DNA from: Telopea speciosissima
Lineage: Eukaryota; Streptophyta; Magnoliopsida; Proteales; Proteaceae
Direction of reading: 5' to 3'
Length of the DNA: 64,000 nucleotides
Assembly: GCF_018873765.1 (NCBI RefSeq)
Contig: NC_057920.1
Coordinates: 13,839,307-13,903,306, forward strand
Each line of letters starts with the position of its first letter. The first letter of the stretch is position 1. Both the position numbers and the translations under genes were made by a program. The notes under the pieces are model-generated. The model saw nothing but the letters and a program-made list of their open reading frames with translations. It was not told where the DNA came from and did not search any database. Of the stretch, positions 31,792 through 33,271 are shown piece after piece.

Positions 31792-31800
31792 TAATACAAG

Positions 31801-33156
31801 GGATCCAGATCCTCTACTTCCAAATCATTGGCAACCATCGCGCTGCCATGCTCCCCTGGTGTGCCATGTCTATATATGCGCATCTAACGGTTATTTGGTG
31901 AAATTTTCAAATTTTAAAATCCTTATTTAATTAACTCCACAACAAACTTGAATTGGTCCGATTGATCAAACCAAACCAAATCAAATGGGTTGTCACCACT
32001 GGTTGCCAGAACCTCAAAGACACCATTGCCGATCGTCAAGATGAAAACATCAAATGTACCACCACCCAGATCATAAATCAAAGTGTTCTTCTCTCCTCCC
32101 TTTTTGTCCAATCCATAGGCAATTGCAGCAGCTGTAGGCTCGTTAATTATTCGAGCCACATTAAGCCCTGCAATTATAACCTGCATCCATTGTGGCCTGC
32201 CTCTGTGCGTCATTGAAGTAAGCTGCAACAAGAAACACGCAGAGGTCATGGAGAAGAAGAGTTAAATCACAAATCAAAAAAGAGGGATGTCAAATTCTAT
32301 ACAGTAACAACGGCATCCTTAATTTTCTTCCCAAGGTATGCTTCAGCCGTCTTCTTCATCTTCACCAGTATCATAGCACTGACTTCTTCAGGGCTAAACA
32401 CCTTGGTCTCTCCATCTTTGATCTTCACCTGTATATAAGGCTTCCCATCTTTGTTCACAATCTTGTAAGGCAAGAACTTTTTAACTCTCTGTACCTCCGG
32501 ATCATCAAACCTAAAAAACATTAAAAAAAAAATAAAAAAATACAACAATATCTATTAAGAGATTTGAATCAAAATTCCAAAATCCGTTCAGAATTGAAAT
32601 TTGCTCATTTGCTCTAAAATTTCCAAAAAAAAAAAAAAACCATTAAGAAGTTTGAAATACTTACTTTGAGTATTTCAAAGGAAGAAAACACAGTTGCAAA
32701 GCCCTTTCACGATTGGGAAAGAGGAAGCAGACGATTTTGCAAAGCCCTTTGCTCCCAAGAGATACAAGTTAAGAAGAGGACGAAGATGACCGAAATAGTT
32801 GCGTTCGTCACGCAAAGAGAGGAACCACAGACACAAGGAGAGGAAAGGAACCGCAGCGGCAAGTGAGTGGCGGCCATCACGCACGGTGAGTAGAGGAACC
32901 GTAGCGGCAGGATGAGGAGAGGAGAGGAAGAAGAAGAGGATCTTCACAGTTCCTCTCTTAGGGTTTTTTGAAATCCATTTGGTTGGTTTGGTTTGATCAA
33001 CCGGACCAGTTGAGGTTTGTTGTGGAGATAATTAAGGATTTTAAAATTTGAAATTTTCTCCAAAGAACCGTTAGATGTGGATATATGGACGTGGCACATC
33101 ATGGGAGAGTGGCAGCGCTGGCTTGCCAAGGATTTGGAAGTAGAGGATCTAGATCC
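31801..33156. mobile_element. Pack-MULE carrying a captured BiP gene fragment
   Basis: Long TIRs (31801-31988 and 32975-33156, about 185 bp, visibly similar throughout) start 'ggatccagatcctctacttc' and, from the right end, 'ggatctagatcctctacttc'. The perfect 9-bp direct repeat 'taatacaag' flanks the element (31792-31800 and 33157-33165), the Mutator-like TSD. The interior has no transposase. It holds a BiP (ER Hsp70) gene piece at 31991-32510, which abuts the left TIR, plus about 460 bp of unidentified sequence (32511-32974). That second segment could be another acquired fragment. Confidence 0.9.
31991..32510 (-). pseudogene. Captured BiP (luminal Hsp70) exon-intron-exon fragment
   Basis: The parent family is the ATP-driven ER chaperone BiP. 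Exon A (32510-32301) reads '[18 protein letters not shown]', '[16 protein letters not shown]' and '...[14 protein letters not shown]'; a splice-like 'ttttttag' precedes it. After a retained intron, exon B starts at 32222 with '[11 protein letters not shown]' in one frame, then shifts by one base to '[20 protein letters not shown]' and 'DLGGGTFDV', ending at 'EVLATSGD' beside the TIR. About seven bases (codon for P and the splice donor) appear to be missing at the exon A end. The piece covers only part of the ATPase domain, so it is not a functional chaperone. Transcription is possible but not shown. Confidence 0.9.
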
Positions 33157-33271
33157 TAATACAAGAGGGTATATTTTGCTTTTAAATTTTACATGGGGCT
33201 GTTTTTGGGGGGATGAATATCAAATATATTCAATGAAGTGCAAAGAATAAAGGGCACCCAATGGTGGATCT

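What the first reader, a model, noticed from the sequence alone, without database searches (positions are those of the whole stretch)
31792..33165. Pack-MULE with a perfect 9-bp TSD carrying part of a BiP chaperone gene
Long TIRs (about 185 bp), the identical flanks 'taatacaag', no transposase, and a host gene fragment abutting the left TIR are all seen directly. Known Pack-MULEs duplicate host gene pieces and can be transcribed or yield small RNAs that target the parent. The BiP piece lies antisense relative to the + strand and could affect ER-stress genes if expressed.
Basis: partly seen in the sequence, partly recalled or inferred. Interest (0 to 1): 0.75.

Follow-up and report, generated by a model that had tools for sequence, protein, structure and literature searches.

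The report
Plant transposon carrying a chaperone-gene fragment
This is a small plant DNA transposon that copied a piece of a chaperone gene and then spread to at least five places in the genome; it is a clear example of a known kind (a Pack-MULE) and shows no sign of being a working gene.

Summary
Confirmed. Window 31801-33156 is a 1356-bp Mutator-like element with long terminal inverted repeats (TIRs; 167 of 196 columns identical) and an exact 9-bp target-site duplication (TSD), TAATACAAG. The window's own assembly (823 Mb; probably Telopea speciosissima) holds four more full-length copies, 88-90% identical. Three of five copies have perfect, different TSDs. The captured piece, about 570 bp with introns, comes from a BiP gene on contig C7: 92.7-95.2% identity, against 71.9-73.6% for two other BiP genes. 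Sister elements have longer TIRs; the left arm stops where BiP starts. There TIR and parental gene share 9 of 10 bases, reached at 1 of 7491 positions of the parental locus, which favours template switching. A decayed FAR1/MULE-type transposase lies inside one family TIR. Coding changes fit neutrality, cytosines in CG and CHG contexts show strong transition decay, and no ATG frame from the right arm crosses a modelled splice into BiP in any of five copies. An effect on the parental gene is untested. New member of a known kind.

The parts
31792..31800 (.). left target-site duplication TAATACAAG
   Evidence: exact match to the right copy; 1 exact 9-mer pair at that spacing among 62,600 positions
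31801..31991 (+). left terminal inverted repeat, ending at the capture junction
   Evidence: TIR alignment (which runs four bases further); junction by comparison with sister TIRs and parental gene
31992..32222 (-). second captured BiP exon (5' part only), with a 1-bp frameshifting insertion
   Evidence: alignment to parental gene L025; HSP70 match
32223..32302 (-). captured BiP intron; beside it 7 bp (GTTCCAG) of the preceding exon end are missing relative to the parent and the four other copies
32303..32510 (-). first captured BiP exon, open frame
32511..32560 (-). 3' part of the preceding parental intron with acceptor AG; right capture breakpoint at about 32555-32561
   Evidence: alignment of five copies with the parent
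32561..32847 (.). inner right arm of unknown origin; from about 32604 shared with two other family ends in whose held stretch no BiP match was seen (L041, L042)
32848..33156 (-). right arm, matching the end of the transposase-bearing element at 74.8%
32969..33156 (-). right terminal inverted repeat, the part that pairs with the left TIR
33157..33165 (.). right target-site duplication TAATACAAG

Best explanation
The element is a Pack-MULE: a non-autonomous Mutator-like transposon of a family whose transposase was of the FAR1/MULE type. Shown: long TIRs, 9-bp TSD, a BiP fragment with introns matching a BiP gene on another contig, five dispersed copies with the same breakpoints, and a decayed transposase element sharing the same end. 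Inferred: the fragment was captured once, at DNA level, during repair of a gap in a MULE, when synthesis switched between the TIR and the BiP gene at a 9-of-10 base similarity. The chimera was then mobilised in trans and inserted at new sites, this one included. It has since decayed neutrally and was probably cytosine-methylated. Any effect would be at RNA level (TIR-driven transcripts or small RNAs); none is shown.
For: TIRs and TSD. Five full-length copies, the four others 88-90% identical to the window copy; TSDs 9/9 in three of five (window TAATACAAG, L021 ATGCTTTAA, L024 GTTAGGTAA), 6/9 in L022, 7/8 with a one-base offset in L023. The C7 gene is 92.7-95.2% identical to the copies, the C6 and C1 genes 71.9-73.6%; the five copies fall on one side of a split with support 0.92. 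Introns are retained. Left junction: 9 of 10 bases shared at the switch, reached at 1 of 7491 positions of the parental locus. Sister elements with both ends whole have TIRs of 277-506 bp, and the left arm of the BiP copies leaves that alignment at the junction. Transposase: PF10551 hit at C8:25188305-25188589, about 1.8 kb inside a family end at C8:25190377; FAR1 E 2e-14, MULE E 4.3e-17, SWIM E 0.0015 below its cut-off. Nonsynonymous:synonymous:stop changes 45:22:3, expected without selection 48.2:19.6:2.2.
Against: The transposase element is broken by stops and only one of its ends was found in the 10 kb held, so the autonomous partner rests on one decayed copy. The origin of 32561-32847 is unknown. 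The strict junction overlap is about one base once an extra T is counted; the register of the 9-of-10 count was chosen after seeing the alignment, and one strand was tested. TSDs of two of five BiP copies are degraded. The BiP piece differs from the copy consensus less than the arms do, also at transversions (33/2750 against 75/4011, p 0.04), which a uniform clock does not explain; gene conversion by the parent could.
Confidence: 0.96

Rival explanations
1. A BiP pseudogene or segmental duplicate into which inverted repeats happened to fall, not a transposon that moved as a unit.
For: The BiP piece is degenerate (7-bp deletion and 1-bp insertion in the window copy).
Against: Five dispersed copies share TIRs, arms and BiP breakpoints and lie in different flanks, three with perfect TSDs. 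A search with the left flank 31401-31800 found only the window itself. No family TIR was found in 7.5 kb around the parental gene.
Confidence: 0.01
2. A chimeric gene kept by selection: the right arm supplies a promoter and first exon, spliced to the BiP exons, giving a truncated BiP ATPase-domain protein.
For: A GTAAG donor in the right arm (4 of 5 copies) and the BiP acceptor AG (5 of 5) are present. L021 has no indel or new stop in the two BiP exon pieces.
Against: Of 27 ATGs upstream of the modelled donor in five copies (4, 7, 6, 3 and 7), none opens a frame that crosses the splice. Four of five copies carry a stop or a frameshift, and changes match neutral expectation. The window copy has lost the exon end next to the splice site. 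Other splice models were not tested.
Confidence: 0.03
3. A source of small RNAs or antisense RNA that lowers expression of the C7 BiP gene.
For: Identity of 92.7-95.2% to the C7 gene over 517-524 aligned bases but 71.9-73.6% to the other two BiP genes, so an effect could be paralogue-specific. A promoter in the left TIR would read BiP antisense (inference). Transition decay at CG and CHG sites of the BiP piece suggests past methylation. Rice work reports 24-nt small RNAs on MULE internal regions and TIRs (PMC4858842, abstract and passages).
Against: No expression or small-RNA data are at hand. CHH-site transitions, expected of small-RNA-directed methylation, are lower in the BiP piece than in the arms (1.7% against 4.4%, p 4e-4).
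Confidence: 0.08

Closest known systems
Pack-MULEs of rice and other plants (Jiang and colleagues, recalled and seen in reference lists; PMC8277862 and PMC3310237, passages read)
   Same: Long TIRs, 9-11 bp TSD, no transposase, internal host-gene fragment copied from an unlinked parent, several copies with different TSDs.
   Different: None in kind. This one is from what appears to be a Proteales genome and the captured gene is BiP. [quoted passage not shown]
PM-ZIBP, tomato Pack-MULE family with a zinc-ion-binding-protein fragment (PMC3310237, passages read)
   Same: Multi-copy Pack-MULE family with one identified parental gene; similar element size (944-1372 bp in the three rows seen).
   Different: 13 PM-ZIBP copies have tandem TIRs at both ends and one has single TIRs; here the five copies found have single TIRs.
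Pack-TIRs of animals with gap-filling and template-switching models (PMC8277862, passages read)
   Same: Microhomology at a breakpoint is the trace expected of template switching.
   Different: Those are animal elements; here a plant MULE.

Membership tests
MULE (Mutator-like element) | long TIRs, typically 100-500 bp (PMC3310237) | tested here: met
   195/188 bp at 85.2%; sisters with both ends whole 277-506 bp
MULE (Mutator-like element) | 9-11 bp TSD with at most 2 mismatches (criterion in PMC3310237) | tested here: met
   9/9 in the window; of 17 two-ended family members tested, 7 have 9/9 or better (5 strictly, L021 with the ends, L037 with 10/10), 4 have 8/9, 1 has 7/9, 5 are poorer
MULE (Mutator-like element) | TIRs belong to a family with a MULE-type transposase | tested here: met
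   FAR1, MULE and sub-threshold SWIM pieces inside one family end on C8; decayed, second end not found
Pack-MULE | no transposase, internal host-gene fragment | tested here: met
   10 of 15 frames of at least 40 aa scanned, HSP70 in two, no transposase family; BiP match
Pack-MULE | parental gene elsewhere, not flanked by the TIRs | tested here: met
   C7 gene L025 with open exon frames from the N-terminal region to NDEL (no gene model was built), no TIR found in 7.5 kb
Pack-MULE | transposed as a unit (copies with different TSDs) | tested here: met
   five full-length copies; three with perfect TSDs, two degraded
Pack-MULE | empty site in a relative | not testable with these tools
   no relative of this genome is held; no second copy of the left flank was found
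Functional Pack-MULE-derived gene | purifying selection or an open chimeric frame | tested here: not met
Functional Pack-MULE-derived gene | transcripts or small RNAs | not testable with these tools
   no RNA data available

The most novel reading that the evidence does not exclude
The five copies act as a paralogue-specific regulator: TIR-driven antisense or small RNAs from the captured piece target only the divergent C7 BiP gene and leave the two other BiP genes alone.
Probability: 0.05. Interest if true: 0.55.

Novelty: new member of a known kind. Interest (0 to 1): 0.25.

Why it matters
It is a clean case with most pieces in hand: the element, four further copies, the parental gene, sister elements without the capture, and a decayed transposase relative. 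The left junction sits at the one position of 7491 in the parental locus that reaches 9 of 10 matches to the TIR, so it is a usable plant example for the open question of how MULEs acquire gene pieces. Otherwise it is ordinary transposon biology.

Tried and rejected
A larger duplication of the BiP locus was rejected: the left flank search found only itself and the parent's surroundings gave no TIR. Another BiP gene as the source was rejected on identity. A chimeric protein was rejected on frames and substitution counts. L028 (4.8 kb between two ends) was first taken as a candidate autonomous element; five of its longer frames gave no Pfam match, its flanks show no TSD, and its parts match other elements piecewise. 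Five frames of sister elements gave no Pfam match above cut-off (one SecE match at E 0.14, below it), so what they carry is unknown. Rfam gave 0 matches at gathering thresholds in the window. The origin of 32561-32847 was not found: the whole-element search gave only the copies and two other family ends there, and a separate search did not complete. On the plus strand two frames of the element match Pfam NAD-GH (E 2.8e-12 and 8e-4); I read this as an antisense HSP70 frame (recalled artefact), not a gene. Dropped before the TSD count: L031 and L033 (truncated at one end), L048 (340 bp) and the one-ended loci (L026/L041, L027/L043, L029/L042, L030/L044, L040, L049/L053, L050, L051). Family counts are lower bounds: 40 of 74, 40 of 68 and, for the transposase domain, 150 of 828 candidates were scored.

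Papers: PMC3310237, PMC8277862, PMC4858842, PMC4053705 and PMC13080361 were seen as passages only; all others in search listings only, and the Telopea genome paper itself not at all. Searches for Pack-MULE with BiP, Pack-MULE with TIR, TSD and parental-gene terms, Pack-MULE with Proteaceae, Pack-MULE with small RNA and parental terms and Telopea with Mutator and transposon listed no paper whose title or abstract start describes this element; no other search for prior description was made.

Full report
What is there. Window 31801-33156 is a 1356-bp element bounded by TAATACAAG on both sides (31792-31800 and 33157-33165), exact. Of 62,600 positions of the window, one has an exact 9-mer pair at this spacing. 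Its ends align as inverted repeats over 195 and 188 bases, 167 of 196 columns identical, score 241 against a maximum of 46 in 442 random pairs from the window. The repeat finder gives the same arms in three ungapped blocks.

The genome. The window lies in a held assembly of 822,943,500 bases in 1287 contigs; C1 to C11 are 57-88 Mb long. A published table gives Telopea speciosissima 823 Mb, 11 scaffolds, N50 69 Mb (PMC13080361, passage). The species is therefore inferred, not given.

Copies. A search with the element returned 94 matching pieces (40 of 74 candidates scored). Five are full length: the window copy and C7:26174156, C5:56440917, C4:10927664 and C9:8804421, 88-90% identical to it. 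The TSDs are TAATACAAG 9/9 (window), ATGCTTTAA 9/9 (L021), GTTAGGTAA 9/9 (L024), 6/9 (L022) and 7/8 with an offset (L023). The five share the same arms and the same BiP breakpoints, and in a tree of the BiP segment they fall on one side of a split with support 0.92, the three BiP genes on the other. So the piece was most simply captured once and the chimera then moved.

The captured piece. It is on the minus strand and matches a BiP gene on C7 (L025) over element positions 182-727, 516 of 562 columns; the alignment of the copies carries it to about 32560. It holds the 3' end of one intron, a whole exon, the next intron and part of the following exon. L025 shows open exon frames from the N-terminal region to a C-terminal NDEL; no gene model was built. 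The genome has two more BiP genes, on C6 and C1. The copies are 92.7-95.2% identical to the C7 gene and 71.9-73.6% to the other two over 517-524 bases. Retained introns show that DNA, not spliced RNA, was copied. The exon pieces of the window copy match Pfam HSP70 (E 6.8e-31 and 1e-19), and the first hits BiP/GRP78 best among solved structures.

The family. Other elements share the ends but not BiP. Four 1.4-kb elements (L035, L036, L037, L039) are 93-95% alike; L038, L045, L046 and L047 form another set, L032, L052 and the truncated L031 a third. TIRs of the sisters with both ends whole are 277-506 bp. The right arm of the BiP element reaches as far: element positions 1048-1353 match the end of the transposase element at 74.8%. 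The left arm leaves the family alignment after 191 bp, where BiP starts. Of 17 two-ended elements tested for TSDs, 7 have 9/9 or better (5 in the strict count, plus L021 with the ends and L037 with 10/10), 4 have 8/9, one 7/9, and 5 fewer. In 3000 random position pairs of the window, 1 reached 8 of 9 and none 9 of 9.

The transposase. Of 150 scored PF10551 hits in the genome (828 candidates), one that I noticed by position, at C8:25188305-25188589, lies about 1.8 kb inside a family end at C8:25190377. Its surroundings hold FAR1 (E 2e-14), MULE (E 4.3e-17) and a SWIM match below the curated cut-off (E 0.0015), in frames broken by stops. Several sister elements share up to about 500-670 bp with this end and look like deletion derivatives of it. 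No second TIR was found in the 10 kb held. I conclude that the family was driven by a FAR1-type MULE transposase; this rests on one decayed copy.

How the capture happened. At the left junction the uncaptured TIR reads CCAAATGGGT and the parental gene CCAAGTGGGT, 9 of 10 the same. Of 7491 positions in the parental locus only this one reaches 9 of 10. The register was chosen after seeing the alignment, one strand was tested and the junction carries one extra T, so the strict overlap is about one base; allowing for three registers the chance is still below one in a thousand. Template switching at microhomology is what gap-filling models expect; in animals 190 (67.6%) Pack-TIRs show it at one breakpoint or more (PMC8277862, passage). 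This step is inferred.

What it does now. Against the copy consensus, the BiP exon pieces of the five copies show 45 nonsynonymous, 22 synonymous and 3 stop changes; 48.2, 19.6 and 2.2 are expected from the spectrum of the non-coding parts. Four of five copies have a stop or a frameshift; L021 has neither. A GTAAG donor in the right arm (4 of 5 copies) could splice to the BiP acceptor, but of 27 upstream ATGs in the five copies none opens a frame that crosses that splice. Other splice models were not tested. A protein function is not supported.

Decay pattern. Transitions are 8.9% and 9.1% at CG and CHG sites of the BiP piece, 1.7% at CHH sites and 0.8% at A/T sites (CG+CHG against CHH p 3.5e-8; CHG against A/T p 1.5e-11), as expected of methylated cytosines; in the arms the values are 12.8%, 11.0%, 4.4% and 1.2%. 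CHH transitions are lower in the BiP piece than in the arms (p 4e-4), CG and CHG not significantly so (p 0.36 and 0.55). Rice work reports that methylation of MULE internal regions and TIRs differs and changes with age (PMC4858842, abstract and passages). Methylation here is inferred from decay only. The BiP piece is also less diverged at transversions (p 0.04), which I cannot explain with certainty; gene conversion by the parent is one possibility.

Verdict. This is a multi-copy Pack-MULE, a known kind; sacred lotus, in the order Proteales like Telopea, is reported to have 1,447 (PMC4053705, passage). The suggested effect on ER-stress genes has no support here beyond sequence identity to one parental gene.

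Noticed in passing
window 33310-33399: Imperfect inverted repeat (36-nt arms, 81% complementary, 18 nt apart) just right of the element, hairpin- or MITE-like.
   Followed up: no
window 24809-25282 (-): ORF with part of a KNOX1 domain (PF03790, E 2.5e-13); the element lies about 6.5 kb upstream of this ORF.
   Followed up: no
window 18993-19850 (-): Remnant of a copia-type reverse transcriptase (PF07727, E 3.1e-20).
   Followed up: no
L025 (C7:35430000-35437500), about 2.6-5.3 kb: The parental BiP gene is 74.2-74.4% identical to the two other BiP genes over 524 compared bases, and its last exon frame ends in NDEL; HDEL is what I recall for plant BiPs.
   Followed up: partly
L054 and L055: Two further BiP genes, 90.9% identical to each other over 540 compared bases.
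   Followed up: partly
five BiP copies: CHH-site transitions and transversions are lower in the captured piece than in the MULE arms.
   Followed up: partly
window 31935-32213 (+): The strand opposite the BiP piece matches Pfam NAD-GH (PF10712, E 2.8e-12), which I recall as a spurious family read from the antisense strand of HSP70 genes.
   Followed up: no
L048 785-1124: A 340-bp element that is little more than two facing TIRs of this family.
   Followed up: no
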